Source: Micromussa lordhowensis
Lineage: Eukaryota > Cnidaria > Anthozoa > Scleractinia > Lobophylliidae
Reading direction: 5' to 3'
Assembly: GCA_964020085.1 (NCBI GenBank)
Contig: CAXHUQ010000746.1
Location: 20,001-84,000 of the forward strand
Length of the DNA: 64,000 nt
Notes under the pieces: model-generated
Database searches by the model: none
The model's input: only the letters and a program-made list of their open reading frames with translations
Told to the model about the DNA's origin: nothing
Translations under genes and position numbers: made by a program
Shown: in pieces, positions 6,564-50,975 of the stretch
Layout: each line of letters opens with the position of its first letter
Position numbering within the stretch: position 1 is the first letter of the stretch

Positions 6564-9500
6564 TCATTCCTCTCGCAAATCATCTGCTCCTTTGTCACCA
6601 CTTTGTACATGTTCAACATTTCCTGAAAAACTTTTGGTTTCTTCGTCCAGCGGCCTGAAAACATACAAATGAGTCAAAGCAAGCGACTAATGAAACACCT
6701 GCAAGTAATTGACTCGAAACGATGTTCAGAAGGGCCTACTTTTACATCTACAGAGGTGCTCTCTTACAGAAGATTCCACAGGGCATCTTCCATGGGACCA
6801 TCCCCAGAAATGTGCAAACCGGACTGCCTCATGTAAGGGGCTACTTCACAATAGGGACCATCTCATGCACAGTTGTAAGGGCCCACGAAATGTAAGGGAC
6901 CATTTTCTACAAGATGAAACACCTCCCTAAAGGGGAAAAATTCCAATAGAGGACTCTATCCAGGAGAACATCCCATAACACAAACCACTATAAAAAGAAA
7001 CTTCCTCTGAAGATTGGGGGTCATACAGACATGATCTGTTAGTTGCCTTCTTAACTTTAATAGGGGCGGTTAGACTTTATTGCCATTTCTCACTTACATG
7101 ATAAAATGCTCCACTTTTTCCGGAGTTATAGGCACCGCATTGTAGCCAGTTATTCTGTTGAACTCAGTTAGGACTTCTATCTCCTTTTTGCGCATCTGCA
7201 CAGGCAAATGAAGTCAAGTCAGTACAACTTGTTATCCCAATTGACTCCCACAGCTCATTGCCAAAAACACAGTTTTTGGACATCTTGGAGATTTTAAGAC
7301 TGAATATGCACCGAATTAGTTCCAATCAGCTCAAAAGGCATTTGCAACATAATAGCATGCTTTGCTTTCTACTAACACCATGTTTTATGACATTGTCATG
7401 GACATGGTCATGCACATGCAGAAATCAAACTTTGGAGAAAGTGAGCCATGTCTTTAGGCTTTTCCTGTTTTTTTTTTTTCTTTAATTTGTTTTTCGCCTT
7501 TCCTTTTCTTATCTTGTTGCAGCAAGGATTGTCCAATACACCCAATTAGAGTTGATTCGACTCTGGCATTTCCGATTAGCTTTACTGGAAGTCGATTCAT
7601 GATTTCTTGGATGGAATCGACACAACTAGTCTCTGTTAGTGTTTATTCGACATGCCTGAAGTCGATTTGCGCTTTGAATAGCTTCTTTGCATCCATAGGC
7701 AAGCGCCTAGCTGACAAAATAACGACTACCTGGTCAAATTGCAACTTGGTTTTAGAACAACCGTTGTCTCAGTTCCAGTTAACTGAACTAGAGGAATCGT
7801 TTGTGCTTCAGCAGCTTGCCTCTTTGAAGACAAATAAAGCAATTGGTTTGGACAAAATTAGGGCTAGACTACTCAAGAGCTCTGCTAATACTATCACTCC
7901 CTCCATCACTAAGCTGTTGAATCGATCGATTCTTTCAGGTAAATTTCCTAAATTGTGGAAATGCTCAAAAATTACAGCCTTGTTTAAATCTGGCGACCGG
8001 TCAAATACATACAACCTTTATTTATACACGATAAAATATCAAAGCTAACAAGCTTGTGGGGTCGTGTACTACTAATCTACAATTAATCACAATTAATAAA
8101 ACTAGCTACAATTAATAAAAAATAATAATAATGATTTTGATTTTGATAAGTCAATATTTAAAAATAAATAAAATTCTCCGATCTTTTGTTGATTATTTGT
8201 GGGGCTAAAACATTAAAATGAAAATCCCTAAAAGCGTGACAATTAACAACATTTTTCAAAAAGGATTTCAGGTCTGTGTGCTCTAGTATCGATCTATTAG
8301 ATCGCCCTATAGCGTTCCAGAGGACAGCCCCTCTATAGGAAATGGAGTTATGGACGTATTTGGAGGCAAAACTCGGTACTATCAGCCCATGCTTCAGTCG
8401 TGAGGAAGGTCTGTTGCCGTGGATAATCAACTCATCAGCTAAAGTGCTTGGGAGCATGCCATGATAACCCTTGAAGAAAAGCTTAATTAAAGAACGTTTA
8501 TACATATATGTTAAAGTGTTCCATTTAACGGTAGCTAAAACGTCAACCGTTGGCATGTCCGGTGGAAAACCAAAAATAATTCTAGCAGCACGGCAATGTT
8601 GTCTTTCCAATGTTTTAAATAACTCAGTCTGATTAACTCCGCCCCAGACAGGCATCGCGTACGTAATGGATGGCTGGATAACCTTTACGTAAAATGACTC
8701 GCACACATGACTGGGTAGAAACCTGGATTTCTTCAGGAGGCTCAATTTGTTTGCAAAGTTTTTAATGACTTCTTTCAGATGAGGTATCCAGCTCAGGTTT
8801 TGATCCAAGGTAACACCCAGAAGCCTGGCCGTAGCCTTGTATTCAATAATGGACTTGCCAATGTAAATGGCAGGCAGCGGCCCAATAAGCCGAGCTTTGG
8901 AGAGTAACATTACCTCGCACTTGCCAGGATGTGGAGTAAGGCGGTTGTTAACACACCAGGTGAAAAGTTCTTCCAGGGCACAATTTAGTAAATTACAAGC
9001 GACGTCTTGCGAGGAGCCTATACAGAAAACCGTAGTGTCATCAGCGTACATAAAAGTATCTCCAGATTTAATAGATAAAGGTAAATCGTTCGTAAAAAGC
9101 GTAAACAAGGTAGGGCCCAACACCGAGCCCTGTGGTACTCCGCACCTAACGTACATTTGTGGAGATTCTTTTCCATTTATCGTCGTGAACTGCTTTCGAT
9201 ACGAAAGGTAGCTCTCCAGCCATGCATAGAGTTCACCATGAATGCCGAACTGTCCATGTAATTTGTCCAAAAGGCGCGAGTGTAATGCATCGAACTATCG
9301 ACCTATCTCTATTTTACCGACACTCAGTAAAATTCTCGAGAAAGCCGTGCATTCCCAGTTGTACCAATACTTGGTTATTAACAACCTTCTCACAAGGAAA
9401 CAGTTTGGTTTCAGGAAGGGGCTCTCTACTGAATCTGCTTTGACATCATTTGCTGATGAAGTCTTATTGAACATGGAACAAGGTAAACTGTGTGGGGCCG

Positions 9501-12500
9501 TGTTTTTGGATTTAACCAAGGCTTTCGACACCGTGGACCATCGGATTTTGTTACGAAAGCTTTCCAAAATTGGTTTATGCGAGAACTCGCTTCAGTGGTT
9601 CCGCTCTTACATTACTGACAGGAAACAGCGTACATGTTGTGGGAATGAGTTGTCTGATGAATTGCCAGTTACCCATGGGGTCCCTCAGGGAAGTATTCTG
9701 GGTCCTCTGCTATTTGTCATCTACATTAACGATTTGCCAAGCGTTCTAGATGCCTGTCAAGCATCACTTTATGCAGATGACACGGTGATCTACTGCTATG
9801 GGTCTTCCTCTCAGGAGCTGACTGAAAAGCTCAACCAAGACCTCCTGGCTGTGGCGAAATGGCTAAATGAACACAAGTTAACACTGAATCTGGAGAAAAC
9901 CAAATGCATGCTTATAGGCAGTAACAAGAAGTTACAGAGGAAAATAGCTCTAACCGTTTCAATTTTTGATCATTGTATAAACAATGTTACTTGTTTTAAA
10001 TATCTTGTAATCTTAATATCGTCTGATTTTTCGTGGACAAATCATGTTGAATACATGGCAGGGAAAGTTAATCAAAGGCTTGGCCTACTTAGACGCATTA
10101 AGCATTTGTTACCGTTTAAAGCGCGTATCCTTTTTTATAAAAGCCTTGTTATGCCCTTATTCGAGTATGCTGATTTAGTTTGGGGAGACAAACATAATGT
10201 AACTTTAATGTCTAGTTTGCAAGTGCTTCAAAATAAGGCGGCTAAAATAATATTAGATCGACCACTGTATTCTTCTGCGTCTGATGCGTTAACTACACTG
10301 AAGTGGTTAACACTAGAAAAAAGGCGCTTCCAGCGCCGATGCGTACATGTATATAAATGTCTTTATGGTCTCACGCATCACAAATTAACATTAGTCACTC
10401 AGCAAGAACAGCATAGTTACAACACAAGAAATAAAGCAAACCTCAAAATTCCATCCGTTAAAAGAAACTGGGGTAAACAAAGAACTGGCTATCATGCTGT
10501 AAATGATTTTAACTCGCTGGACAAAACTATACGAGCCTCTGATAATGTAAATATTTTGAAGCGTCAGATTTTTAATTCATTGATTTAAGTTTTGTATTAC
10601 ACATAAGATACATTAGTTTTTAGTAGCATCTTTTAGCATTTTTATTCATTGTAAAGTTTTAATTTTTAATTTTCGAGGTCCTTTTTGTAAACCACTTTTT
10701 AGTGAAAAAGTTTCCTCATTAAAGATTGTTATTATTATATTATTACCTAGAAAAAACAGCGCAACTGGGCTATGCAGGGTGGGTTAGAAATGTTGTTGAT
10801 TTGACTTGATTCAATCGAATCGATACGACTCGTCTTCCATAATGTCGATTCGACATGCTGGAAGTCAATTTGCAAATATAGCGTAACTGGGCTATGCAGG
10901 GTGGGCTGAAAATGTTGTTGATTCGACACGATTCGATCGAATCGACACGATTCATCTGCATTGATGTTGATTCGACATGGCGGAAGTCAATTTGCGCGAG
11001 ACTTAAAAAAATATAATGCAACTGGGCTATACAGAGTGGGTTGAAAATGTTGTCGATTCGACATGATTTGATCGAATCAACACAACTCGTTTTCCGTTAT
11101 GTTGATTCAACATGCCAGAAGTCGATTTGCACGAGACTTACATCGAATCGACTTCTCACGAATTGAGTCAAATCGTCAAGAACCTAAGACGAATCGACTC
11201 AAGTTTGTTGTCACGTTTTAAGAACGAGAAAGGTTCATGCATTATTATTTCACGGGTCTTGACTTCCGGTGGTGCGGATCAACTTCTTACAAATCAAGTC
11301 GAATCGTCAAGTACCTCAGACGAATCGACTCAGTTTGGGTGTATTGGACATGGATGGTTGCAGGTGAGTGATTGACCTTCTACTGGGCTTGCTTCCAGTT
11401 CAAAAATTTCAGAGAAAGCATTTTTTGAGATGGGCAATTTTTACCATGGAGTAGCTAAGTGTAGTTGCAGGAAATTTTGCTGCGAGATTTTCACTCAAAT
11501 TTCTAAGCAATTTAAGAACTTGAGACAATTTTGGTCAGAGGCGATAACATCAGAAATGGAACAAAGACCAACGCTTGTCACAGCCAGTTATGGCACGCAC
11601 AAAAGTCAAAGGGTTAACATGATCACCCATATTTACCATGAAGTGCTCTTGCAGTGGCCACCCAGTTCATATCAGGAGATTTTAATGACCCATGTGTTCG
11701 TTTTCCAAGAACATAACAGTACTGAACCAGTCTGGTCAGACACAAGCCCCCAACCTCACTATCCAAAGTCCAACACCAAGGAGGGGACTTCCATGTGAAA
11801 AGGTCGGCATGCTCATCAGAAAACTTGAATTAAACTCCTAAAGGAGACCAATCTGGTCGTGCTTCAAGATTGATCGGGATCAATCATATCACTTTAAAAT
11901 TATAGTGAAATTTCATCCTGAATACCCTTAGTGAGATCAATATCTGTGATTCACACCACTTATTGAGATAATGAGCATACCCAACCCACAAGGGACGTAC
12001 CCCGCAAGGTCCAATACATTCATCATTAAGGCACAAAGCTCACCCACCAAGTCTGCATACAAGCCAAGTGGCCAATCAGGCCTGGATCTGTAGTATGAAG
12101 TGACTAGGAGTATTTGTACTCCCCCACGTAGATGAGATGCTAGTCCATTGCAGGGTTACCCCCCTCCCCCCAAGCATTAAATTTGCCAGTACCCATTAAA
12201 GGTCAAGTTACCTTGTTCAGGTTGTTCTGTGTGTCGTGTGTATATCCTAGTAAGTGACAGAGACCATGTGTTATTATGACCTGGAGATGAATAAAAAAAT
12301 AAATCACAAACTTAAACAGTTCTTCGACCGGGCTTTGAGGCTTTAGGATCGAGGATCAAGTTAACTTGTTCAAAGCTTCAAGTGACTGTAACTTGTCACT
12401 GCTAAGTAATGTATATCATTACATGGTGTAATAAAGTTCTTGCAAGAGTCTAGCATTCTTAATCATGAAGTCACTGTGAATGACTTACTGGTAAATAATC

Positions 12501-37100: not shown

Positions 37101-40100
37101 TAATGTGTCCCCATTTCCCACATTTGATGCACTTGACATTACGAACCTGAAAAAGTATGTAATATAAGAATGCTACAGGCCAGTAATGGCAAATCTTTCA
37201 GTAACAGAGAAGTTTCACAGGCAATTTCTTTGGTTTTGGTTTTACTATGGTGTGAGATTGGCTCAGTAGCCTAATTGGTAAGCAATCAAATGCCCTTTCC
37301 TAGTGCAATACCATGTTCCCCTTGAGAAGAAAATGTCCAAGCCATGATCACAGTATTTTGCTGCAGACTGGTTTAATGATAAAGCAATCGGAAGTACTGC
37401 TTCAAAACTATAGTTTGACTTGTTTTAGAACTTTAGTGTTACTCTGAAAAGTATGGAATTTCCATGCAATTTATTGCTCAGAAAGTTCATATTGTGGCAA
37501 ACAGTCTGGGTAACAGAGTTTCCAATGGGTAGCAGATTTATGATAAGAAAAGAAAAGATGAATGAATACGATATTTAACAATGTAAACCTTACAGCAATT
37601 CCAAATGGCTGATCACGTGCTTCGATGCCTAAGCTCTTGGCATATCTACAGGAGAAAGATGAATAGCTTAGATTCATGGAAATACACGCACATGTACATT
37701 CAAAATGGAAACAACTCTTCAAAATGACAAGAAAGCTATTTGGACAAAGCCAAACAAATTCAAAGTTTCTCGTAAACAATGACTTTAAATCATTTGTGTT
37801 AACACAAGGTACGTACGCCTCTCTTGGTGCTCCTCGTTGCCACTCAAATTTTACTTCACCTTCCTCTTCCTCTGCAACCTAAAAAATACTTTCACTATGA
37901 AAGGCGTCTTTTTATAACAAAAAGCATAATTAACATGCAAAAAGCATCTGAGGGCATTTTTTCCTAAATATTCCGTATTTGTTAAATGAAGCATTTGAAA
38001 GATATTTCTAAAACGTCCTCTATTAGTGCAGCTGTCAGTTGTCCAAGGCCTTAAAAATATTCCATACGTCAGGAAGTGAATGGGTGTAAATTACTAATTA
38101 AATAATTGAAACAAATGATGATACATTTTTTCTTTATTACGTTGCTTATCACTTCTGGAGAATCAAGATCCAACTGTGCTAATTAACTTTTCTGTTGAAC
38201 TTACCTTCTTATCTATGATATCCAATGATTTATGGAAGAAAACAAAACAAAAAACACTGATAAGTACGTAGTACTGTACAAATATTTTAGTATGATATAA
38301 GTAACCATTCTATTTTTATTACGAAAATCTCAGAAAACAGTTTGAATGTTTGAAATACATGTACCAGTAATTATGTATGGAGAATAATTTGTGCAGCCAC
38401 TAAATATTGAAATAAATGTTCTAGTTGCTAGTCATAGCTTTATCTGAGCAAATTGTGACACAAGATGTGGTTACAACTAATTTTGAACTTTTCGTTATTC
38501 ATTTCTTCCACATACATTTATACAATGTTATAAAATGTGGTCTTTTTTCATTAGTATCACCCAACTAGTGGACTAATGCAAATCCTGCATTTTAATTGGC
38601 TACGCTACTCGAGGACTATTAGCAATAGTCCTTGTGCGCCATCGAGCATGACGCTTTCTATCGTTTTAGTCCCAAATAAATATTTCTTCAACTTACATTT
38701 GCCAACTTTCTTATTGCCATTTCTGTCCGACTAGTTGAGTGATTTTCGCCTCATGGGCTATTAACCTATAGTCCTTTCAGGCTACGGGTCTAATTGTTAA
38801 TTAGTCACAATTTAAGTCTTAGAAATCTCACCAGGCCTTTCTATGGTTCTTTACAAGTCTTCTAGCAATAGTTGCTAGTCTTTTGCTTGTACTTGTCAGA
38901 GGGTTGTCCAATACACCCAAAGTGAGTCGAGTCGTGCAACGTTGTTGTCGACTCGTCTTACCGGAAGCTATATGTATTCTGTAGTTACTTTACTATCCGG
39001 AAGTTGAAGTAATATTCGCTGGTTTCTACAGGAAGTTAGGTTCATAAGTTACTTGCGTTACTGACGAGTCGACACCACTCGACTTTTTGAGTTGTCTAGT
39101 TGATAGTGTGAGACTTAGTATAAAAGTGCTTGAAGTGGTTGTGGTGGGGTTGTATAAAATGTAGTGGAGTCGTTTCGAGTCGTTACGAGTGGTGTCGACT
39201 CGATCAGTCGAGTCGAGATAGTTGACTTAGTATAAAAGTGGCGAAGTGGTTGTTGTGGGGGTGTATAAAATGTCGTCGAGTCGTGTCAAGTCGCTACTAG
39301 TGGACACGACTCGTGTTAGGGAATTGTCGGGTCGACAGAGTGAGACTTACTATAAAAGCCGTGTTTGCAGTGGTTGTGGTGGGGGTATAAAATGTCGTTG
39401 AGTCGTGTCAAGTCGCTACGAGTGGACACAACTCGTCTTATAAATTAGTGTATTCAGTTAAGGCTGTTTGAAGTTATCTATAGTGTACATCGATTGTGTA
39501 CAGTAAGTGGGTGACAATGTTGGCACTCGCTACACCAAAATTTGCAAAATGATAATTTTGTGGAAGTTTTGTTATGGTGGAAAATTATTATCAAGAATCT
39601 ATGCAATGCAATTAATGTATGGAATTGTTATGCCAAATTAGGTACATGAAACACAAGTGCCTGCAACAGCAATTATTGCTGTTTCAGAGAAAGATGTTTT
39701 TAGTTGTTTTTTTGAGAAATTGTAATGTTATAGTTAGATCATTTTGTGTTTACTTTTGATTGACACATAATTAGTGGCTTGTCAATTTTGTTTGTTATCT
39801 ATCTGTTGTAGCAACAATATTAATTACAAAAGGGATTTGAAGCAATTATTTTGGTAAGGTCTTGTGGAAAACAATATAGCAATGACTTTAATAGCAATTG
39901 TTTGCTAGGGGAGATTTTGAAATGTTCTTCTTCTTCTTTGAAATTTCCAAAGTTTCTCTTGATTCTCACACTGATGCTCTTTTCAAAGAACACGGGATTT
40001 TGAAATTCTTTGACATTTATTTTTACCAGATAGGTAAATTTATGTATCTGTTTAAAAAAGGTTTACTTCCTAATAATTTTTGTAATATGTTTACTTTTGC

Positions 40101-41988
40101 AAGCCAGTTACATTCGCATTATACTAGAAACTGCAACCATTATTACATACCTCCCTGTCGAACTAATATTAGAAACTTCTCAATTCGGTTTCAAGGACCT
40201 AAGTTTTTCAATTCGTTAAGCCCTGAAATTCAAAACAGTGAAAGCATCCGTTCGTTTGGCAATAGACTTAAAACATTCCTCCTACAGAAAAATTGAGCTT
40301 CTTACTTCTTTTCTTCCTTTTCTTTTTTCTTTTGTTTATTTATTTATTTATTTATTTATTTTTTTTTGCTTTTGTTGTTGTTGTTGTTTTTTTTTTTTTA
40401 TACATAATGCATTTTAATATTTCATGCTGTCCCCACAGTTTGTATGATTTACCCTTAGATTGTCAGGAAGCCTATAGTTCATAAGCCCCTGGCTTCTATA
40501 TAGGCTTCCTTACCATTACCACCTTCAAAATTGTTAAGTTGCCGTCTTTAAGTTCTCTTAAATTTCTAGTGTATTGCGTTATTTATTTATTTTTATCTTT
40601 CTTGTGGTTAATGGAAAATAAAATGGAAATGGAAATGGAAATATTTAAAGTCGAATCAATCTTCTGCTGAAATTTCATTGACGCGTGGTCTCTTTCTTGG
40701 GGAGGAAGTGGCAGGTACCCCATTCTTTCTGTTCTCATAATCTTCATTATGTTTGTCACTGTGAATGAAACAGATTGAAATAAATATCTTTGGAAATCAT
40801 TGTAATTACAATACACTGGAAAATAGTGCATGCAAGTGAAAGGTATGTTATTGTCAATGTCAAAGGTTTAAATTGGGTGGTTTGAATGTTAGCGTCATTG
40901 TTCTTAAAGGTTAGAGTTCATTCAATAAGTTGGATTATTTTTTTAAACTATCGTTTGAAATAAACTGACAATCATGTGATAGATTGTCCTCATTATGGAC
41001 TACTGTATTGTAATGTTTATTTTATATAGGTTACCTGTTGCCCACCCAGGTGTTATTATATTATTTGTATTTTCATTTAATGTAAGATGCTGCAAAGTAC
41101 TTTTTTGGCACTTATTTTTGGATATTAAGTACAATTCAGTTACAAATGGATATTATTGCACAACTATAATATTTACCTCTCTTCATTTGCTTGTGTGTAA
41201 GCTGCTTGATATTTTGGCAGGGAGAGGCCTATTGCTGCCAATTTTTTGGCAAATTCCATTGCTTCTCCTCGGTCTTCAGGGATATTTTTCTTCTTAAAGA
41301 AATAAACCTATTGTACAAAGTGTATGATATTGTTATTAGTAACTTTTAATGGGGTTTGTTCTTGAAAACCTCTGTAAATGCTTTGAAGAGAAATTTGGTT
41401 ATCAACAATCTCTGTGCTCTTTATTGAATCGTGTTATTGCTGCTCATCGAAATGAGTTGCTGTTTTATGGTATGTATTAAAAGACATAAATACCTCCAAA
41501 TTTGCACATGTGTACATGGAATGCAGTGTTTGTTGCACCAAGCATCAACATGGATTTTGAAATGAAATTTATCACAGACCATATCCATTCATGACATTTG
41601 GTGGCAATTAAATCACTTCGTTCCGGATTCAGAGAAAATGTTTTCAGATAACAAGCATCATTGTTGTTATTTTGTGATTATTGGCATTCTTATAGATAAA
41701 CGGGCTTTTTGCTAACAATCATGGTAACCAAAATGACTAGTCATATGACTGATACATTTCATAAGAATTAACAATGCACAAGAAATCCTGTATATAGTGC
41801 AGATATTAAGTTTGTTTATTGGAATTATCTTGCGATAAATTGCATGATTGTAGATTAGGGTATGGGCCTTTTTTATAACAATGGGAAAAACATTACTGAT
41901 CATGGGACTGATACCTATTTGATTATATTTGCTTTATACCAAGATCAATTAGTATAGGTAATCATACACTTTTTGCACTGGTGTTGCA

Positions 41989-42021
<33 letters not shown>

Positions 42022-45000
42022 GAGTAATATTTTTCATGTGTATTATTAGCTATGATAGAAGATGCAAGAAGTAAAATTAACTCACCTGGGATTTGTTTCC
42101 AGGGATTATGAAAGTTTCGACATGCCCTAATTCCAATGTAGAAATTTCCTCCACAACTCTCAGCATTAATTGTTTCCCTGTCTGGTTGTTGACGTTATGT
42201 CTTCGGAAAAGGCCTTTGTAATTCAGCTGAGTGAAGCTTATAATTGGACCTGGAGTAGTTAATACTGCTGTGTAGAGTTTGTTCAACGGAATTGTACTTG
42301 ACGGATTGTCTGTTTGGATTTCATGTGGAGTTTCTGATGATGATGGAGTCGAGAAGAACGATCGATATCCTCCAAAACAGTCGCCATACTATAATAAAAC
42401 CATCAACTCCGAACAACTCTCTCGAGAAAACAGTAAAAGCAACCGCTTCGTCCCCAGTCTCTCTGTCTCACCTTTTGTTGTTATGACACAAAACAATGAC
42501 AACATTGGAAAGCGGTTGAGACAACCCGTTATATGATCCGATTTGTATGTACGGGCCGATGTTTGTGGTAAAAATTGATCGCTCTTCTGCATAACTATAA
42601 TGATTGAGTTCTACTTTCCATGGCTTCTTGTTTCGATGCACAATTTTATTTCCTGCACAAAAAGGGTCATTTGTCTGCACAACTTTATAGAACGTGGTAT
42701 ACATTGCATGGCTTTTTGTTTGGATGCCCAGTTTGGTTTCCTGCACACGACTTTATTTAAAACGTGTCATTTGTCTGCACAAGTTTACAGAACGAGGTAT
42801 ACATTGCATGGCTTCTTGTTTCATTTCTTTTGTGCTTTTCTCTGCAAGCGCGTTTTTAGCCATATAAAGTCGAGTCGTGTAGAATAGTTTAAACAGTGAC
42901 TTTGAACGTTTATTTTGAATCTATTAGTTTAATCTGATATTTATTAATTTTGTGTGATTTCCGGTCAGCGGTCGTTACTGTAGTTTAGTCTCGTCATTGC
43001 TTACGTCACTATTCGGGAAAGGTACAAAACACGTTTTTCGTTCCCGCTCAAAAGCTCGCTCAATATGACCGCCATGTTTGTAACGCTGTCGAACCAAGTG
43101 AAATATAGTTGAGTTCCTATCACTGTTGTATTTCCTACTTCCCCACATTTTTGGTGCCGGGACCAGGATGGAAGAATTACCGAAACTGCTAGCCTCGAGA
43201 AGAGCACACAAGGCGCATTTAACCAAGTTAAGACACAAAATCGACGAAACTGCAAAAGGCACAATTACCCACAATGGGATTGCTTTACTCAAGTCGCTCG
43301 TCGACCAACTGAAACAAAAGAGACAAACCCTCAAGGAACTTAACGATAAGATAGCAGTTTTACTGGAAACTCCTGAAGAACTCGAAGTAGAAATACTCGA
43401 TGCAGAGGAACTAGACAGCCTTATCGTGGAGAAAGTTTGCATCACCGACAATTTAATTGAACTCGCCAAAGGGAACCTCAGTCAACCAGTGTCGTCTCAC
43501 AGTCCTGACACTATCGGTACTCCGCCAAGTTTGCCGCAAGGGGGACAAGAAATTCAACAACCCATTCCATCTACGTCGCAAACGGAACAAGAAAGTCAAC
43601 AAGCCAATTCACCCCCGCCGACTGGAACGTCAGATAGCGATTTTCAAGGTAACACAGCCGCCTCAGCAGAGAATCCTCCGATTACACCGCCGCCGGTGAG
43701 TACATTCCAAACTAGTCGTTTACCTAAACTTGTATTGCCATCGTTTAATGGGAACCCGCTTGAATGGCAATCGTTTTGGGACGCTTTCCGGTCTGCAGTA
43801 CACGATAACTCTTCAGTCAGTGATATCCAAAAGTTCAATTATTTGAGAGCACAGTTACGCGACGGAGCATTGCCGGGTTGCCATTAACAAGTGCCAATTA
43901 TGCTAAGAGTGTTCAGTTATTGAAAGAGAGATTCGCTCAACCCCACAAGATCATCAATGCACACATGGAGGCACTACTCATCCTTCCATCACCCACTGAC
44001 CATTTAAGTAGTCTGAGGCTTTTCTACGACTCAGTTGAGACACACATCAGGGGACTTGAATCACTAGGAAAGAAAACAGAAACGTATGGAGATATTCTTG
44101 TCCCCATCATTCAGAAGAAATTACCTACTGGGATTAAGAGGAATCTAGCAAGACAAAATGGAAATAAGGAGTGGCAGCTTGATAATTTGCGGAAGGCAAT
44201 CTTGAATGAAATTGAAATCTTAGAAGCAGGTCAGAACAGTTCTAGTGACTATGAACTCAGTAGTAACTCAACAACTGCTGCTACTGCTGCATTTCTCACG
44301 TCTTCGAAGCCACATACACCTGTTCTCCCTCCTCCCACTGATCGGCGCCCCACCAAACGAACATGCCTTTTCTGTAAGGGCGAACATAGTCCAAATGATT
44401 GCAATGTCGTGACAGATAAGGGAAAGAGATACTCCATTGTACGTGATGCAAGGGTATGCTTTAACTGTCTTAATCGTCATTCAGTATCTAAATGCAAGTC
44501 ACGGAACCGATGCAAGGTATGCCACCGAAAGCATCATACCAGTCTTTGTCAAAATGTAGAACCACCACCTCTAGTGTCATCCACTGAACCAACAACTGCA
44601 AACAAGATTTCAAGTACACTCGCCACAGACAAGACTGTAGCACCTTCAGTCTCATCCTATCACATTGGCGATACTGACAGACAGACACCCGTTCTGCTAA
44701 AAACAGCTGTTGCTTCTATTGGAAGTCACAACAACCACATCAGTGCGCACATTCTATTCGATGAAGGCTCTCAACGCTCCTTCATTACATCAGACGTAGC
44801 AACCAAGCTTGATCTGAAATCAGAAACGCACGAGACAATATCTCTGTCAACTTTTGGTGGAAGCACATCATCTGTTAAACGCCTTGACACTGCTACCATT
44901 TATCTCAAAACTGCTCAAGAGGAGACCATTCCCATTCACGTGATCATTGTGCCAACAATTGCTGCGCCGCTCACTACTTACACTGGTGCCAACGTAAGGG

Positions 45001-48000
45001 ACTTGCCACATCTAAAGGGACTGTCATTAGCACAAATTAACGTTGATGATTCACCTTTCACAGTTGATATTCTAATCGGTGCTGATCATTATTGGGACAT
45101 CGTGGAAAACGAAGTTATCAAGGGTCCAGGTCCCACAGCAGCCAAATCAAAGATAGGGTACCTCCTCTCAGGCCCCCTCTCCAACAGTAACCATTCAGAG
45201 AGCCTCAACACTTCTATTTTAAATGTTGTGACCGAGCATCGTCAAGAACAGTTTGATTTGGAACGTTTCTGGCAGATTGAATCAGTTGGTGTTCAGCCAG
45301 ACTCCTCAGAAGAAATGCCTGACTTTCTGAAGTATTATCAAGACTCGTCTATCACGTTGGAGGATGGCCGGTACAGTGCAAAGTTACCATGGCGACCAGA
45401 ACATCCCCCTCTACCATCAAATGCAGAAGTCACTAAGCACAGAACCCGTTCCATGATCAGAAAACTGATTACAGATCCTGAGAAACTGCGCATGTACAAT
45501 GACGTCATCCAAGAACAGCTGTCTCGAGGCTTTATTGAAAGGGTGAACAATCCAGATTTGACCAACGGAGAGTGTCATTACATACCTCATCATGCTGTCC
45601 TCAAGGACTCCAACACAACTCCCCTACGCATTGTGTACGACTGCAGCTTCAAACAAGGTGAACAACCCAGCTTGAATGATTGCTTACAGCCAGGCCCTCC
45701 GCTTCTCAATGACCTTACTGGCATACTTCTACGCTTCCGTCTTCACAAGTATGCCATAGCTACAGACATTGAAAAGGCATTTTTACATGTAAACCTGGAC
45801 CAAGCCGATCGAGATGCCACGCGATTCTACTGGCTACCTAATACAGATGACCCAGAGAGTGAATTCATTGTGAACCGATTCAAGTCTGTTATGTTCGGTG
45901 CCACAAGTTCCCCCTTCATCTTAAACGCCACCCTCAACAAGCACCTCACGCAGTCTACAGACCAAATCAGCTTGGATATGCTAAGGAATCTGTACGTGGA
46001 CGACCTCGCCTCAGGAACAAGCGATGATGGTTCAGCAGTCAACTATTACCAGGATGCCAGGAACAAGATGTCACCAGTGGGCTTCAACCTCAGGTCATGG
46101 AGTTCAAACAGTCCTGGTGTTCAACGCCTTGCAGCCAAGGATCAAGTCCTCGACACCAGCCCAACTAAGAAAGTACTTGGCATGCTTTGGAACATAACTT
46201 CAGACACCCTACGAATCTCATGCAAACAAGCAACCTCTACCCCTCCATTGTCAACCAAGAGAGAGGTGTTACAAGAAACAGCAAAAGTCTTTGATCCACT
46301 CGGCTTACTTCAACCAGTCACCGTTGCTGCTAAGATTCTAATCCAAGAACTGTGGAAGGAAAATATTGATTGGGATGACCCCCTTCCACCTTCTCTTGAT
46401 CAAAAATGGCGTACTGTAGCAAAGGAGATAGGGGATGCAACCAAACTTGAGTTTCCGCGTCGCTACTTTACTTCTGATGTCTCTGTCGATAACAGTGATA
46501 CAGAACTACATGTTTTCGCTGATGCGAGCCAAAAGGCCTATGGAGCTGCCGCTTACTTGGTACGTGAAAACCAGTCGTCCCTAGCCCTGGCAAAGTCTCG
46601 TGTTGCTCCAACAAAGAAGAAACGCACCCTTCCAGAGCTAGAACTTATGGCAGCTTTAACAGGTGCACGTTTAGCTTCTTATCTTCAAGAACAACTGCAA
46701 GTTACGAGAGTCACGTTGTGGTCTGACAGCCAAATTGTACTTCATTGGCTCAAAAGCACCAAGTCGCTGAAGCCATTCATCAACACTCGCATCCAAGAAG
46801 TAAAAAAGCTGACATCTATTCCCAACTGGAAGTACTGCCCTACAACTGAGAACCCCTCCGATCTTCTCACAAGAGGGATAACAGCACATCAACTGAAGAC
46901 TTCTTCACTGTGGAAACATGGTCCCACATGGTTGCCAAATAGATCTCTGTGGCCTACGTGGCCTACAACAGAGGTTCTCCACTTATCAGCCACTGAAACC
47001 TCAACTGATGGGTCCCCTGCAAACAGCACAATCCCAGTTCAACAACAAGGCCTTCATCGCCTGATCAATCCATCGGATTTCAGCAGTTTGCCAAGGCTTC
47101 TACGCGTTACAGCCTATGTTTTCAGATTTGTACAGCTTCTCCAGAAGAAGGTCAGCCAACAAGGTCCAATTACAGCTATGGAATATGATCATGCCATGAC
47201 AGAATGGGTAAAGAATCGTCAATCTGTTGTCTTTCATGCTGAAGTTGGCAACCTTTCCTCAAAGCCAAGACACCGTACAACTTTGGTACGTCAACTTCGC
47301 CTTTTCCTTGATGACGGTGGTCTTCTACGCTGTGGCGGGAGGATACATAACGCACCCTTAAGTAGCAACACCAAATTTCCTCTGCTGCTACCAAGCAAAG
47401 ACCGCTTCACAGATCTAGTAATTCACTCCACCCATGTCAAGCAACTTCATGCAGGTGTCAACTCAACGCTCACCGCCCTGCGTCAAAGTTACTGGGTTCC
47501 TTCTGGCCGACAACGCGTCAAAACCTTAATTGACAAATGCGTAACCTGCAGAAAGGTTTCAGGAACAGCCTACAATGCACCAGACCCACCACCCCTTCCC
47601 AAGTCAAGAATGCAACAAACACAACCCTTTGAAGTCACAGGAGTGGACTACACTGGAGCTCTGTATGTTCGAAACGCTGGAATTGAAACAAAGGTCTACA
47701 TATGTTTGTTTACTTGTGCAATAACCAGGGCTATTCATCTTGAAGTTGTTGAAGACTTGACTGTTGAAGCCTTCTTGCTCGCCTTTCGCAGATTTGCAAG
47801 TCGCAAATCTCTTCCAAGGAAACTAATATCTGACAATGCCTCAACATTTGTATCAGCGAACAATGAACTTAAGGAACTGTTCCAATCTCATGCGCTCAAG
47901 GAAACACTTGCTAGGGAAGGCATTGAATGGCTATTCATTCCAAAGAAGGCGCCTTGGTATGGCGGGTTTTGGGAACGCCTCATCGGTCTTACCAAGTCCA

Positions 48001-50975
48001 CCATTAAGAAGGTACTCGGCAGAGCTGCAGTCAACCTGTGCACTCTTCAAACGATTGTTGTTGAAGTGGAGGCAATTCTTAATGATCGCCCCCTGACCTA
48101 TGTTTCCTCGGACATTAGGGATGAAGAGGCATTAACCCCTGCGCATCTACTTTATGGCCGACGAATCACGTCACTACCACATCCACATGTAGAGAGTGAC
48201 GAAGTGGATGATCCCACCTACCAAACAAACATAGATTTCCTGGGGAAGACAAAACACGTCACGTTACTGATTCAACACTTTTGGCAACGTTGGCGTCATG
48301 AGTACCTCACCTCCCTCCGAGAGTTCCACAAAGGTTCAGGAATCAACAAGGAATCCGTAAAGGTTGGCGACGTAGTTCTAATCCACGATGACAACCCGAG
48401 AGTAAACTGGAAACTAGCACTTGTCACCTCCATTAACAGAGGTCGCGATAGACTTGTACGTTCCGTCAATTTACGTACTGCTAATGGAACAACAAACCGC
48501 CCCATAACAAGATTGCATCCTCTAGAAGTTCAAGCCAAGGAAGTACAGTGTCCCACAGAGGCCGAAACAACCACAGTAGAAACTCCAACTCCTGTGAGAA
48601 GACCACAAAGAGATGCAGCACGACGTGCTATGAGAAGAATTGCAGACTGGACAAGGGACATTTGCGTGCCCCCGGAGGATGTAGAATAGTTTAAACAGTG
48701 ACTTTGAACGTTTATTTTGAATCTATTAGTTTAATCTGATATTTATTAATTTTGTGTGATTTCCGGTCAGCGGTCGTTACTGTAGTTTAGTCTCGTCATT
48801 GCTTACGTCACTATTCGGGAAAGGTACAAAACACGTTTTTCGTTCCCGCTCAAAAGCTCGCTCAATATGACCGCCATGTTTGTAACGCTGTCGAACCAAG
48901 TGAAATATAGTTGAGTTCCTATCACTGTTGTATTTCCTACTTCCCCACAAGTCGACTACTGGAAGTAACGAGTCGTGACGACCCGACGACATTGATCGCT
49001 CTTCTGCATAACTATAATGATTGAGTTCTACTTTCCATGGCTTCTTGTTTCGATGCACAATTTTATTTCCTGCACAAAAAGGGTCATTTGTCTGCACAAC
49101 TTTATAGAACGTGGTATACATTGCATGGCTTTTTGTTTGGATGCCCAGTTTGGTTTCCTGCACACGACTTTATTTAAAACGTGTCATTTGTCTGCACAAG
49201 TTTACAGAACGAGGTATACATTGCATGGCTTCTTGTTTCATTTCTTTTGTGCTTTTGTCTGCAAGCGCGTTTTTAGCCATATAAAGTCGAGTCGACTTCT
49301 GGAAGTAACGAGTAGTGTCAACTCGTGTCGAGTCGTGACGACTCGACGACATTTCCACCCCCCATTCACGTAGTATGACCATTTCCGGTGACTGTAGTCA
49401 GACTTCCTGTAGGGTTTGTCAACTTCCAGTAAGGATGACTTCATGAATTTCACGACATGACTTTTGCCAAGACGACTTGTCTATACATACAGACGACTCG
49501 ACACACTTTGAGTGTATTGGACATGTGTGACTTGTCAGTGCATGACCAATCTGCCCTATTCAGCGATTAAGACATACCTTTGTCAAAACCAGGTGGTGCG
49601 TCATACAAAAAATCTAAACCTGACTTGATCCTTTCATCATTACTGATAGCTAGTCTGTAGAAGAAAACAAACACACTAAAAAAAACATGCAAAATCAAGT
49701 GTAAGTGAAATTAACCCCGGCTCTTTTCACAGGAATGCAAAAATTGCCATAATAATTGTGCTAATCCAAATTGATACTACAAGGGCCTTAAAATGATTAT
49801 GTGTTGTTTGTCTACATGTATTTATTTCTATTTCGCACCTATTCTTGGAGGTGTGGTGGCCTCATGCGTTGGCCTCATGCGCTTGCCTCCAGATTGAGCG
49901 GTCTGGGTTCAAGCCCTGGTCGGGACATTGTGCTGTGTTCTTGGGCAAGACACTTAACTCTCCAGTGCTTCTCTCCACCCAGGTGTATAAATGGGAACAC
50001 GTGTAATTTAATGCTGCAGGGTAACCCTGCAATGGACTAGCATCCTATCCAGAGGAAATAGAAATACTCCTAGTCTCTTCATGCTACAGAAACTGGGATA
50101 AGCTCTGGCCTGATGGGCCACTTCCCTCGTACGCAGACTTTACCTACCTATTCTTGAATTTTGCTTGTTCCTTGTTATACTGAAGTTCCAGTTCTTTTTC
50201 CTTCTGCTGCTCTGCAAGTAGCTTCTGCTCTGCCATCCAGACCTGTAACATGGAATTGATGCAAAAATTGTTGATTTCTGAATTTGTCAACATAGCCAAC
50301 ATAAACTTATGTAAGGCTGTTTATGATGCATAATATGATTTTAGATCAGGGGCTCAGATTCCCCTTGTGACTTGTGACATGATGAGCTTGCATCTTTCTC
50401 AGTTTAGTTTTTGTCAACATTATGTAATAACTCTCATTAGTAACCACTTCCCATAAGCGACAACTTTTAACCGGTAAATAAAGGTTTTGTTTATACAACA
50501 TGATTGTTGCATGAGGCTGCTGCTTACATGTATGTTGCTCCAGGCATGAAGCAACATGCTTATGTGACTGATTTGTATTTCCTAATTATCCGATGTTAGA
50601 TCACTCCTGAGAAATATTCACCAAGAAAATTTCTTATCATCGCGTAGTTTCTTATAACAGCAATAAAAAAAGCAAATATATGTAGATCCTTTAAATGGCA
50701 GGAAGCAAAACTGCATACATTTCTCTGCATACAATAAATATCTTGGTATCTGACAGCGGACAATTGCACTGCACAAGAAGTCTTATATAATTAAGCCTAA
50801 ACTTAATCAAGACAGTCTTCGATATTAATATTGTACATATTTGTATGAACTGCATTGAACTGACAATGAATTTATAATGCTCCTGAAACCCCGGGTATAA
50901 ACTTGATCTTACCCTTTTGATGTTGGCTTTAGAGCCTGGATGGAAATCCTTCTTGTTCATGAACTTGGCAAACAT
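34127..50975 (-). CDS. CIR1: CIR1 (RBPJ corepressor-interacting / splicing-associated protein)
   Basis: Nuclear protein that links CBF1/RBPJ to histone-deacetylase corepressors. Exons: 50913-50975 ([20 protein letters not shown]), 50148-50242 ([20 protein letters not shown]), 49578-49654 ([20 protein letters not shown]), 38205-38212 (8-nt microexon), 37817-37878 ([12 protein letters not shown]), 37594-37645 ([17 protein letters not shown]), 37087-37146 ([20 protein letters not shown]), 35832-35935 ([19 protein letters not shown]), 35190-35281 ([18 protein letters not shown]) and 34127-34664 (Lys/Arg/Ser/His-rich tail). This follows human CIR1 in order. The 37087 exon ends in phase 0 but the next needs phase 1, so one small exon, expected to hold the last Cys of the zinc knuckle, is missing from my reading between 35936 and 37086. 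Intron 3 contains a 10.6-kb transposon. Confidence 0.9.
34839..35082. mobile_element. MITE, CAGTTGAG family (copy B)
   Basis: A 244-bp element with inverted ends CAGTTGAGTAAGGCGCGA and TCGCGCCTTACTCAGCTG (one mismatch in 18). TTAT/ATTA continue the symmetry outside. The interior matches copy A at 14368-14817. It lies in the last CIR1 intron. Confidence 0.8.
36871..36930 (+). repeat. C/T-rich 21-bp tandem repeat
   Basis: CACCCCCTCCCCCTTCTTCCT is repeated 2.8 times. One strand is almost pure pyrimidine, a sequence that can form triplex DNA. It lies in a CIR1 intron. Confidence 0.85.
38556..38743. mobile_element. Short MITE, ATCACCCAACTAGT ends
   Basis: ATCACCCAACTAGT at the left and ACTAGTTGAGTGAT at the right form a 14-bp inverted repeat with one mismatch. 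The interior includes GCATTTTAATTGGCTACGCT, is non-coding, and stands just outside the 10.6-kb transposon. Confidence 0.55.
39108..39440. repeat. Left subterminal array of TIR transposon copy 2
   Basis: Three units of about 115-120 bp share GACTTAGTATAAAAG, AGTGGTTGTGGTGGGG, TATAAAATGTCGTCGAGTCG and a GTGGACACGACTCGT end. Order and spacing match the copy-1 array (AAAATGTTGTCGATTCGACA ... ACACAACTCGT), so the two arrays are homologous though their palindromes have changed from GATTCG to GAGTCG. Confidence 0.8.
39480..39897. other. Unassigned interior of TIR transposon copy 2
   Basis: AT-rich, non-coding sequence between the left array and the LINE fragment. No feature recognised. Confidence 0.4.
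39898..40645 (+). mobile_element. LINE 3' fragment (C-terminal RT domain and tail)
   Basis: A 132-codon frame (39898-40296) ends with [34 protein letters not shown] and [19 protein letters not shown], the usual C-terminus of L2/CR1-type open reading frames. It is followed by T/TTTA-rich sequence and a 3' end of GGAAAT repeats (to 40645). It is strongly 5'-truncated. It ends 10 bp from the stop codon of the antisense cargo gene. Confidence 0.75.
40656..42388 (-). CDS. Unrecognised three-exon gene inside the TIR transposon (C-terminal part)
   Basis: Three minus-strand exons join in phase: 42086-42388 (acceptor TTTTATTATAG, donor CAG|GTGAGT), 41177-41307 (donor GAGAG|GTAAAT) and 40656-40758 (ending TGA). 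Together they give 178 aa. The order is a Ser/Thr/Pro-rich linker ([11 protein letters not shown]), a folded-looking segment ([75 protein letters not shown]) and a basic nuclear-localisation-like tail ([16 protein letters not shown]). No ATG fits the visible frame near its start, so 5' exons are missing or were displaced. I do not recognise the family. It could be a transposon protein or a captured host gene. Confidence 0.6.
42574..42877. repeat. 304-bp repeat, left copy
   Basis: It starts ATTGATCGCTCTTCTGCATA and ends AAAGTCGAGTCG directly at the BEL LTR. It has one mismatch to the copy at 48991-49294. Internally it has two imperfect copies of CATTTGTCTGCACAA and TATACATTGCATGGCTT. Before the BEL insertion the two copies formed a tandem array with a period of about 340 bp. 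Confidence 0.9.
42878..43147 (+). repeat. BEL/Pao 5' LTR
   Basis: A 270-bp terminal repeat beginning TGTAGAATAG and ending CCCCACA. Identical by eye to 48680-48949. Confidence 0.95.
43168..43887 (+). CDS. BEL/Pao gag, N-terminal part (ends at frame break)
   Basis: The first ATG after the primer-binding site opens a 239-codon frame. It starts with a basic helical segment ([17 protein letters not shown]), then an acidic coiled-coil-like part, a Pro/Ser/Gln-rich linker and the start of the gag core ([32 protein letters not shown]), as in DUF1759. It stops at TAA 43887, while the gag core continues in the -1 relative frame. The sequence at the junction looks shortened relative to the family, which points to a small deletion and not a slippage site. 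Confidence 0.85.
   Translation: MEELPKLLASRRAHKAHLTKLRHKIDETAKGTITHNGIALLKSLVDQLKQKRQTLKELNDKIAVLLETPEELEVEILDAEELDSLIVEKVCITDNLIELAKGNLSQPVSSHSPDTIGTPPSLPQGGQEIQQPIPSTSQTEQESQQANSPPPTGTSDSDFQGNTAASAENPPITPPPVSTFQTSRLPKLVLPSFNGNPLEWQSFWDAFRSAVHDNSSVSDIQKFNYLRAQLRDGALPGCH
43878..48689 (+). CDS. BEL/Pao gag C-terminus and pol polyprotein
   Basis: A 1,603-codon frame. Approximate residues: gag core remainder 1-120; CCHC-like zinc knuckles 163-224 ([21 protein letters not shown]); retropepsin-like aspartic protease about 285-440 ([11 protein letters not shown]); reverse transcriptase about 560-830 with the catalytic LYVDDLAS near 704; RNase H about 870-1000 ([13 protein letters not shown]); integrase zinc-binding region about 1180-1230 (CVTCRK); integrase core about 1250-1400 ([25 protein letters not shown]); and a C-terminal DUF5641-type chromatin domain ([13 protein letters not shown]). 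The stop codon lies within the first bases of the 3' LTR. The whole frame is uninterrupted, in keeping with a recent insertion. Confidence 0.93.
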   Translation: MPLTSANYAKSVQLLKERFAQPHKIINAHMEALLILPSPTDHLSSLRLFYDSVETHIRGLESLGKKTETYGDILVPIIQKKLPTGIKRNLARQNGNKEWQLDNLRKAILNEIEILEAGQNSSSDYELSSNSTTAATAAFLTSSKPHTPVLPPPTDRRPTKRTCLFCKGEHSPNDCNVVTDKGKRYSIVRDARVCFNCLNRHSVSKCKSRNRCKVCHRKHHTSLCQNVEPPPLVSSTEPTTANKISSTLATDKTVAPSVSSYHIGDTDRQTPVLLKTAVASIGSHNNHISAHILFDEGSQRSFITSDVATKLDLKSETHETISLSTFGGSTSSVKRLDTATIYLKTAQEETIPIHVIIVPTIAAPLTTYTGANVRDLPHLKGLSLAQINVDDSPFTVDILIGADHYWDIVENEVIKGPGPTAAKSKIGYLLSGPLSNSNHSESLNTSILNVVTEHRQEQFDLERFWQIESVGVQPDSSEEMPDFLKYYQDSSITLEDGRYSAKLPWRPEHPPLPSNAEVTKHRTRSMIRKLITDPEKLRMYNDVIQEQLSRGFIERVNNPDLTNGECHYIPHHAVLKDSNTTPLRIVYDCSFKQGEQPSLNDCLQPGPPLLNDLTGILLRFRLHKYAIATDIEKAFLHVNLDQADRDATRFYWLPNTDDPESEFIVNRFKSVMFGATSSPFILNATLNKHLTQSTDQISLDMLRNLYVDDLASGTSDDGSAVNYYQDARNKMSPVGFNLRSWSSNSPGVQRLAAKDQVLDTSPTKKVLGMLWNITSDTLRISCKQATSTPPLSTKREVLQETAKVFDPLGLLQPVTVAAKILIQELWKENIDWDDPLPPSLDQKWRTVAKEIGDATKLEFPRRYFTSDVSVDNSDTELHVFADASQKAYGAAAYLVRENQSSLALAKSRVAPTKKKRTLPELELMAALTGARLASYLQEQLQVTRVTLWSDSQIVLHWLKSTKSLKPFINTRIQEVKKLTSIPNWKYCPTTENPSDLLTRGITAHQLKTSSLWKHGPTWLPNRSLWPTWPTTEVLHLSATETSTDGSPANSTIPVQQQGLHRLINPSDFSSLPRLLRVTAYVFRFVQLLQKKVSQQGPITAMEYDHAMTEWVKNRQSVVFHAEVGNLSSKPRHRTTLVRQLRLFLDDGGLLRCGGRIHNAPLSSNTKFPLLLPSKDRFTDLVIHSTHVKQLHAGVNSTLTALRQSYWVPSGRQRVKTLIDKCVTCRKVSGTAYNAPDPPPLPKSRMQQTQPFEVTGVDYTGALYVRNAGIETKVYICLFTCAITRAIHLEVVEDLTVEAFLLAFRRFASRKSLPRKLISDNASTFVSANNELKELFQSHALKETLAREGIEWLFIPKKAPWYGGFWERLIGLTKSTIKKVLGRAAVNLCTLQTIVVEVEAILNDRPLTYVSSDIRDEEALTPAHLLYGRRITSLPHPHVESDEVDDPTYQTNIDFLGKTKHVTLLIQHFWQRWRHEYLTSLREFHKGSGINKESVKVGDVVLIHDDNPRVNWKLALVTSINRGRDRLVRSVNLRTANGTTNRPITRLHPLEVQAKEVQCPTEAETTTVETPTPVRRPQRDAARRAMRRIADWTRDICVPPEDVE
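48680..48949 (+). repeat. BEL/Pao 3' LTR
   Basis: A 270-bp repeat identical by eye to the 5' LTR. The pol stop codon lies within its first ten bases. Confidence 0.95.
48991..49294. repeat. 304-bp repeat, right copy
   Basis: Partner of 42574-42877. The one difference I saw is CTTTTGTCTGC versus CTTTTCTCTGC. It is followed by GAAGTAACGAG and GTCGTGACGACTCGAC palindromic sequence, which also precedes it at 48955-48990. Confidence 0.9.
49846..50142 (+). mobile_element. tRNA-derived SINE (copy A, near full length)
   Basis: The head carries a Pol III type region (GGCCTCATGCGCTTGCC, B box GGGTTCAAGCCC). The middle has TTCTTGGGCAAGACACTTAA, a segment widely conserved in marine-invertebrate SINEs. 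The tail has GGTAACCCTGCAATGGACTAG and CCTGATGGGCCACTT. It lies in a CIR1 intron and ends about 5 bp from the exon at 50148, very close to its splice donor. Confidence 0.8.

What the first reader, a model, noticed from the sequence alone, without database searches (positions are those of the whole stretch)
38900..49529. A large TIR transposon family with 9-bp target duplications and palindromic subterminal arrays, two copies in one window
Two elements (7525-11356 and 38900-49529) share TGTCCAATACACCC ends, short matching extensions outside the inverted repeat (AGGRT on the left, TGKRTG on the right), candidate 9-bp target duplications (7/9 and 9/9) and homologous ~120-bp arrays. Agreement of all four between copies makes chance unlikely. 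The inverted repeat lying 5-6 bp inside the true end is unusual. A 9-bp duplication suits Mutator-like elements, but the array architecture does not match one I know, so the family may be undescribed.
Basis: partly seen in the sequence, partly recalled or inferred. Interest (0 to 1): 0.85.

Follow-up and report, generated by a model that had tools for sequence, protein, structure and literature searches.

The report
Coral transposon with motif-array ends
Two pieces of this animal genome (probably a stony coral) are copies of a jumping-gene family that duplicates 8 bases when it inserts, appears to carry a zinc-cluster transposase gene, and packs its ends with many copies of a short motif whose main form differs between subfamilies.

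Summary
The 14-bp core TGTCCAATACACCC occurs 323 times exactly in the 581-Mb host assembly; the reversed control occurs 0 times. I fetched the 25 convergent pairs found among the 100 listed places. In 26 independent copies the ends lie 6 bp outside the core, flanked by an 8-bp target duplication: 17/26 perfect, 21/26 at least 7/8, none in 2000 shuffled pairings. The proposed 9 bp is 8 bp plus a chance base. Both window copies are enlarged by later insertions (BEL/Pao in B, non-LTR in A). Subterminal arrays are dominated by one heptamer per subfamily (CGATTCG, CGAGTCG or CGATCCG), up to 79 per copy. A TIR-bounded 11.2-kb relative of B carries a split gene whose first exon matches Pfam CxC5, 'cysteine cluster associated with KDZ transposases' (E 8e-5, below the curated cut-off). 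B is an internally deleted relative. Best reading: a KDZ/Zisupton-related transposon, not Mutator-like, with a CxC5-type transposase and motif arrays that co-evolve with a binding protein. The KDZ domain was not detected, no intact copy was seen, and motif binding is inferred.

The parts
38891..38898 (.). left 8-bp target duplication of element B (ACTTGTCA)
   Evidence: sequence
38899..49529 (+). element B: GAGGGT-TGTCCAATACACCC ... GAGTGTATTGGACA-TGTGTG; internally deleted relative of an 11.2-kb element, itself split by two insertions
38899..38918 (+). left terminus of B: 6-bp tip GAGGGT plus 14-bp core
39093..39436 (+). left subterminal tandem array of B (3 x ~111 bp) with palindromic CGAGTCG units
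39826..39930 (-). downstream coding remnant matching the tail of P0007
   Evidence: 86% identity, E 2.9e-8
39931..40639 (+). 709-bp insertion absent from the 11.2-kb relative; read by me as the 3' end of a non-LTR retrotransposon with an ATGGAA tail
   Evidence: blastn; ORF; no Pfam hit for the frame
40659..40760 (-). exon with a basic, nuclear-localisation-like stretch (PRKRPRV)
   Evidence: the join to the previous exon is as in P0001
41179..41307 (-). exon VYFFKKKNIPED...; 49% identical homologue in a CGATCCG-type element (L017)
41344..41418 (-). exon-like piece STEIVDNQISLQSIYR (candidate end of the catalytic region; inferred)
41514..41662 (-). candidate catalytic-region exon (NDACYLK ... 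CDKFHFKIHVDAWC), carries a frameshift and a stop
   Evidence: KDZ-like motif recalled, no Pfam hit
42082..42364 (-). accessory-protein exon (LNKLYTAVLTTPGPIISF...IPGNKSQ); relatives P0001-P0004, P0008-P0015
42346..42387 (-). first 14 codons of exon 1 of the CxC5 gene (MATVLEDIDRSSRL), joined to the next part by a deletion
   Evidence: tblastn E 0.022; blastn, 533 columns at 93% to the region holding exon 1's start; P0006
42574..42873 (+). right subterminal array unit of B, first copy (second copy 48991-49290, identical over 300 nt)
42873..48954 (.). BEL/Pao LTR retrotransposon (42878-48949; two 270-bp LTRs, 270/270 identical) with 5-bp duplication AGTCG, inserted in B's right array; not part of the transposon
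48991..49354 (+). right subterminal array of B, second unit plus palindromic stretch inverted relative to the left array
   Evidence: I1, D1, D5, D6
49510..49529 (+). right terminus of B: core GAGTGTATTGGACA plus tip TGTGTG
49530..49537 (.). right 8-bp target duplication of element B (ACTTGTCA)
7516..7523 (.). left target duplication of element A (GTTGCAGC)
7524..11356 (+). element A (CGATTCG subfamily): about 0.76-kb non-autonomous copy plus nested non-LTR retrotransposon sequence
7673..10744 (.). insertion in A with RT frames (9242-10588 + and 8158-9270 -), absent from relative L028; borders approximate
10758..11131 (+). right subterminal array of A (3 x ~135 bp, CGATTCG palindromes)
11357..11364 (.). 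right target duplication of element A (GTTGCAGG, 7/8)

Best explanation
Elements A and B are copies of a multi-subfamily cut-and-paste DNA transposon, very likely in a stony coral. SHOWN: the copies end in a 14-bp inverted core with a 6-bp tip outside it that differs between the two ends, and insertion duplicates 8 bp. SHOWN: the subterminal regions are tandem arrays of palindromic units dominated by one heptamer per copy (CGATTCG, CGAGTCG or CGATCCG). SHOWN: an 11.2-kb copy of B's subfamily, bounded by both ends, carries exon-like pieces of a gene whose first exon resembles the CxC5 cysteine cluster linked to KDZ transposases; B keeps the start of that exon, a candidate catalytic exon and an accessory-protein exon. 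INFERRED: the CxC5 protein is the transposase; it cuts at the tips with an 8-bp stagger and moves the short derivatives in trans. INFERRED: the heptamer arrays are binding platforms for the transposase or for the element's small basic accessory protein, and array and protein specificity drift together as subfamilies split.
For: Genome copy number 323 exact cores, control 0. 8-bp duplication in 21 of 26 copies (>=7/8), 17 perfect, 0 in 2000 shuffled pairings; left tip GAGGGT in 24 of 26. Heptamers: the most frequent one is CGATTCG in 8, CGATCCG in 18 and CGAGTCG in 1 of 27 copies; the 49.5 kb of window outside A and B holds 0, 1 and 2 of them respectively (also 51); the 11.2-kb copy holds 43 CGAGTCG, 1 CGATTCG, 0 CGATCCG. 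11,241-bp copy with both ends; against B it aligns at 98-99% over four stretches of 347-1136 columns, 93% over 533, and 83% for the first stretch of the left array. Exon 1 matches PF18718 CxC5 at 8.1e-5; of five database relatives P0021, P0023, P0020 and P0019 match it at 5.8e-5, 3.6e-4, 5.1e-3 and 0.035, P0022 not at all. The FFKK exon of B has a 49% identical homologue in a CGATCCG-type element, and a protein named as Desmophyllum pertusum is 50% identical over 84% of P0001. Zisupton makes 8-bp duplications (passages of PMC12730594).
Against: All CxC5 scores (14.7-23.7 bits) lie below Pfam's curated cut-off of 26.9, and the exon-1 pieces of the CGATTCG-type copies L025 and L027 hit no family up to E 1. 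PF18758 (KDZ transposase) and CxC6 were not hit by the exon joins scanned up to E 10 (HMMER's filters drop most weak matches); the join of exon pieces 3-4 hits zf-TRM13_CCCH instead (E 9e-4, 19.3 bits, cut-off 20.9, 15 residues). The 11.2-kb copy has no target duplication (ATAATGCG/GTAAATTC) and a frame break in the candidate catalytic exon, so no working autonomous copy was seen. The accessory exon of B has no match in the 11.2-kb copy, so no single element with both parts was seen. Exon borders are my reading, except the joins present in P0001/P0002. The heptamers are not strictly private: CGATTCG copies also hold 1-16 CGAGTCG, and they were picked after looking at the arrays. AlphaFold models of the accessory protein are poor (mean pLDDT 48 and 50). 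No binding data. Of 26 copies L022, L023, L027 and L030 lack a recognisable duplication, and L014 has one only if its right tip is read as 5 bp.
Confidence: 0.66

Rival explanations
1. A Mutator-like family (Phantom, Rehavkus or Foldback type) with arrays in or next to the inverted repeats.
For: Architecture is similar: PMC6446971 (passages) lists Rehavkus with 9-bp duplications and a minisatellite before the 3' end, and minisatellites after the Phantom reading frame in aphids; FB4 elements show tandem internal modules (PMC4022104 passages). Some MULE groups are listed at 8 bp (Spectre) or 8-10 bp (Phantom), so 8 bp alone does not exclude MULEs.
Against: The duplication is 8 bp in 17 of 26 copies and extends to 9 in 5, about what one extra chance base gives. 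No MULE or PHD domain appeared in the exons scanned; the only transposase-linked hit is CxC5.
Confidence: 0.07
2. An ordinary Zisupton/KDZ family whose arrays are passive minisatellites produced by replication slippage at hairpin-forming palindromes, with no protein partner.
For: 8-bp duplication and the CxC5 match fit KDZ. Of four units folded as DNA, two fold clearly better than dinucleotide shuffles (z -6.1, -3.2) and two weakly (-2.0, -1.7). Unit number varies from 1 to about 10-16.
Against: Passive arrays would not be expected to keep the same CGANNCG framework in all three subfamilies, in left and right arrays, with one variant dominating each copy.
Confidence: 0.2
3. The CxC5-type proteins are not KDZ partners but the transposases of their own superfamily, of which this coral family would be a first delimited animal case.
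For: In Pleurotus ostreatus CxC5/CxC6 reading frames are multicopy, one lay in a 6.8-kb insert that broke poMSH4, and intact KDZ transposons there were never preceded by CxC5/CxC6 (PMC7641404, passages and section 15). PF18758 is not hit here either. The element gives CxC5 a defined vehicle with ends and an 8-bp duplication.
Against: Zisupton also makes 8-bp duplications. Failure to hit PF18758 may only reflect divergence, short exons and a damaged copy; the piece CDKFHFKIHVDAWC...C recalls KDZ-type motifs (recalled, no call).
Confidence: 0.3
4. Chance or composite: shared ends belonging to unrelated repeats.
For: With 3 mismatches allowed the window alone shows little excess of the core (8 vs 4.3 expected).
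Against: 323 exact genome sites vs 0 for the control, 25 convergent pairs with matching tips and mostly matching duplications, and long alignments among copies.
Confidence: 0.01

Closest known systems
Zisupton / KDZ (Kyakuja-Dileera-Zisupton) DNA transposons
   Same: 8-bp target duplication for Zisupton and for a Dileera family (PMC12730594 passages); multi-exon transposase gene (PMC9297572 passages); CxC5-type cysteine cluster (Pfam label).
   Different: PF18758 not detected; ends are a 14-bp inverted core set 6 bp inside unequal tips; large heptamer arrays are not described in the passages I read.
CxC5/CxC6 multicopy insert in Pleurotus ostreatus (PMC7641404)
   Same: A CxC5-bearing multicopy mobile-looking gene without a recognised KDZ neighbour; direct repeats inside the insert.
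   Different: The section I read defines no ends or duplication and associates the insert with a Copia element; here the ends and 8-bp duplication are defined.
VANDAL elements with VANC proteins (Arabidopsis)
   Same: Short motifs accumulated in tandem repeats that differ between related elements and are read by an element-encoded protein (PMC5735166 passages).
   Different: VANDALs are a MULE clade of plants; protein binding is shown there and only inferred here.
Foldback / FB4, Rehavkus, Phantom
   Same: Tandem modules in or next to inverted ends.
   Different: Rehavkus is listed at 9 bp, Phantom at 8-10 bp; the 9-bp duplication and MULE link of Foldback are recalled, no call. No MULE-type domain was found here.
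Coral CMITEs (PMC2872659)
   Same: Non-autonomous elements in coral genomes.
   Different: piggyBac-type, TTAA duplications, other ends (passages).

Membership tests
Zisupton / KDZ | 8-bp target duplication (Zisupton; Kyakuja 7 bp) | tested here: met
   17 of 26 perfect, 21 of 26 >=7/8
Zisupton / KDZ | KDZ transposase domain PF18758 inside an intact element | tested here: inconclusive
   Not hit in exon joins up to E 10, from a damaged copy; the whole-genome search for PF18758 did not complete (17 tries, first, last)
Zisupton / KDZ | KDZ-associated cysteine cluster (CxC5) | tested here: inconclusive
   Best Pfam hit, E 8.1e-5 in the element and 5.8e-5 in P0021, but 23.2 and 23.7 bits vs cut-off 26.9; no hit in L025/L027 pieces
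Zisupton / KDZ | terminal inverted repeats | tested here: met
   14-bp core in inverted orientation, with unequal 6-bp tips outside it
Mutator-like (MULE) / Rehavkus | 9-bp target duplication (Rehavkus and many MULE groups) | tested here: not met
   8 bp; 9-bp matches in 5 of 26. Not decisive: Spectre is listed at 8 and Phantom at 8-10 bp
Mutator-like (MULE) / Rehavkus | MULE transposase domain or PHD finger | tested here: inconclusive
   No such hit in the exon pieces scanned, but no intact transposase was available
Sequence-specific anti-silencing systems (VANC-like) | element-encoded protein binds the repeated motif | not testable with these tools
   needs binding assays
Sequence-specific anti-silencing systems (VANC-like) | motif accumulated in tandem repeats and differing between related elements | tested here: met

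The most novel reading that the evidence does not exclude
CxC5-type proteins, so far filed as associates of KDZ transposons, are the transposases of a DNA-transposon superfamily of their own. It has 8-bp duplications, unequal tips, and subterminal arrays of a CGANNCG heptamer whose middle bases mark the subfamily. An element-encoded protein reads the arrays and co-evolves with them: an animal counterpart of the VANC/VANDAL motif-array system. That would also explain the Pleurotus CxC5/CxC6 insert.
Probability: 0.3. Interest if true: 0.78.

Novelty: new variant of a known kind. Interest (0 to 1): 0.6.

Why it matters
It gives the CxC5 cysteine-cluster proteins, which the Pfam label and the one paper my searches found know as KDZ associates, a defined vehicle with mapped ends and a target duplication. 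It also offers a natural experiment: subfamilies keep the same terminal core but differ in the heptamer that fills their arrays. That makes it testable whether transposon-encoded DNA-binding specificity and its target arrays co-evolve in an animal, as reported for VANC proteins in Arabidopsis.

Tried and rejected
Mutator/Rehavkus/Foldback was considered first because of the stated 9-bp duplication; disfavoured after the 26-copy test and the CxC5 match. A Helitron reading was dropped because of the target duplications. A host-gene-capture reading of the gene on B's minus strand was dropped when one of its exons appeared at 49% identity in a different subfamily and the 11.2-kb copy carried the shared exons on the same strand. 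AlphaFold on the accessory protein gave mean pLDDT 48 and 50, so no fold search was run. A scan of viral contigs with the CxC5 alignment found no relative. PDB sequence matches of E 0.64 or worse only. Paper searches with no direct description. For PMC6446971, PMC12730594, PMC9297572, PMC7599744, PMC4022104, PMC5735166 and PMC2872659 I saw passages only; for PMC7641404 passages and section 15; other papers only as search listings.

Limits of the sample: the 25 genome copies were chosen because both cores are exact and lie within 10 kb among the first 100 of 323 listed places, so they are biased towards intact, short copies. L032 was dropped from the 26-copy count as a duplicate of L031 but kept in the 27-copy heptamer count. 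L001-L008 (single ends) were used only in tblastn checks. In one search I asked for 4 of the 50 unpaired places; three of the four (L034-L036) contain runs of roughly 4.7-5 kb of N, as does L018 (5000 N).

Full report
What was claimed and what is there. All four ends are present, three exact and one with a single mismatch. The window by itself hardly exceeds chance when three mismatches are allowed (8 against 4.3 expected), so the test had to be genome-wide. In the 580.8-Mb assembly holding the window the exact 14-mer occurs 161 times forward and 162 times reverse, and the reversed control pattern 0 times. Among the 100 places listed I found 25 convergent pairs within 10 kb and fetched these 25.

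Ends and target duplication. Across 26 independent copies (24 genome pairs after dropping L032 as a duplicate of L031, plus A and B) the flanks match best as an 8-mer lying exactly 6 bp outside the core on both sides: 17 perfect, 21 with at least 7/8, against none in 2000 random re-pairings. Nine-bp perfect matches occur in 5 of 26, which chance extension explains. The element therefore begins GAGGGT-TGTCCAATACACCC (24 of 26) and ends in a tip whose reverse complement is CAGTCA (11), CATACA (5), CATCCA (3) or a variant (7). The tips of the two ends differ, so the elements have an orientation. Four copies lack a duplication (L022, L023, L027, L030); L014 shows one if its right tip is 5 bp.

Nested insertions. 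B is interrupted by a BEL/Pao retrotransposon (Pfam Peptidase_A17, RVT_1, DUF1759 and others) with identical 270-bp LTRs and an AGTCG duplication, and by a 709-bp insertion absent from its relative, which I read as a non-LTR fragment although its frame hit no Pfam family. A is interrupted by about 3.1 kb with reverse-transcriptase frames (RVT_1) absent from its close relative L028. Without these A is about 0.76 kb and B about 3.8 kb.

Arrays. Subterminal regions are tandem arrays: 3 x 111 bp in B and 3 x 135 bp in A, 10 x 134 bp in L018, about 16 x 115 bp in L030 (other periods also reported), about 9.6 x 138 bp in L017. Each copy is dominated by one palindromic heptamer of the form CGANNCG: CGATTCG in 8 copies (9-79 per copy, with 1-16 CGAGTCG beside it), CGATCCG in 18 (3-40, with at most 3 of either other), CGAGTCG in B (14, none of the others); in the 49.5 kb of window outside A and B the three occur 0, 1 and 2 times. 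I chose these heptamers after seeing the arrays. Of four units folded, two form hairpins clearly better than shuffles and two only weakly.

Coding content. On B's minus strand lie exons whose relatives include database proteins P0001/P0002, 99 and 98% identical and read across exon joins, and a protein named as Desmophyllum pertusum at 50%, a stony coral (recalled), which suggests the host group. One exon has a 49% identical homologue in the CGATCCG-type element L017, so I take the gene to belong to the transposon. A fetch of four unpaired places gave L037. Joined to L038 it is an 11,241-bp element with both ends, no N, and 43 CGAGTCG heptamers; against B, four stretches align at 98-99%, one at 93% and the first stretch of the left array at 83%. 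Its minus strand reads exon 1 (233 aa) and further exon-like pieces over about 6 kb. Exon 1 matches Pfam CxC5, 'cysteine cluster associated with KDZ transposases', at 8.1e-5, 23.2 bits against a cut-off of 26.9. Four of five database relatives match the same family, from 5.8e-5 to 0.035, the fifth not; the exon-1 pieces of L025 and L027 hit nothing up to E 1. B keeps the first 14 codons of exon 1 and a candidate catalytic exon (41514-41662), broken by a stop and a frameshift. PF18758 itself was not hit; the join of pieces 3-4 hit zf-TRM13_CCCH at 9e-4 instead. The 11.2-kb copy lacks a target duplication and a match to B's accessory exon, and its candidate catalytic exon has a frame break.

Mechanism. 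Most likely a CxC5-type transposase binds the ends, cuts at the tips with an 8-bp stagger and mobilises internally deleted copies in trans. The arrays most likely serve as a multi-site platform for that protein or for the small accessory protein with a basic PRKRPRV stretch. Cleavage, binding and co-evolution are inferred; ends, duplication, arrays, gene remnants and their damage are shown. The best model for the arrays is the VANC/VANDAL case, where motifs accumulate in tandem repeats, differ between related elements and are read by an element-encoded protein (PMC5735166 passages).

Known kinds. Zisupton gives 8-bp duplications (PMC12730594 passages) and has multi-exon transposases (PMC9297572 passages). 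In Pleurotus, CxC5/CxC6 genes are multicopy, one lay in an insert that broke poMSH4, and no KDZ transposon was found near them (PMC7641404). So either this is a divergent KDZ family or CxC5 proteins define a transposon group of their own. My searches showed no paper describing this family; they cover only the held open-licence library, and of most hits I saw only the listing. I file it as a new variant of a known kind and leave the separate-superfamily reading as the novel case.

Noticed in passing
42873-48954: Young-looking BEL/Pao LTR retrotransposon: two identical 270-bp LTRs, 5-bp duplication AGTCG, long open pol frame.
   Followed up: partly
60335-60708: A 187-bp unit present twice in tandem, the two copies identical.
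   Followed up: no
1272-1485: Tandem repeat of TTATTACAAAGTGCGACA-type units.
   Followed up: no
2784-3464: Galactosyltransferase (PF01762) reading frame, E 3.6e-33.
   Followed up: no
L013 (G000:C2:2669666-2674140), minus strand 570-949: This CGATCCG-type copy carries two reading frames for which tblastn found no other copy among the loci then held, one with a weak Myb/SANT-like match (E 0.03): possible captured host gene.
   Followed up: partly
L018, L034, L035, L036: Runs of about 4.7-5 kb of N inside or next to these elements, perhaps fixed-size assembly gaps at repeats.
   Followed up: no
L031 and L032 (G000:C4:15620129-15632429): Two copies about 10 kb apart whose printed flanks (20 bases each side, target duplication included) are identical: probably a local duplication that included the insertion.
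   Followed up: no
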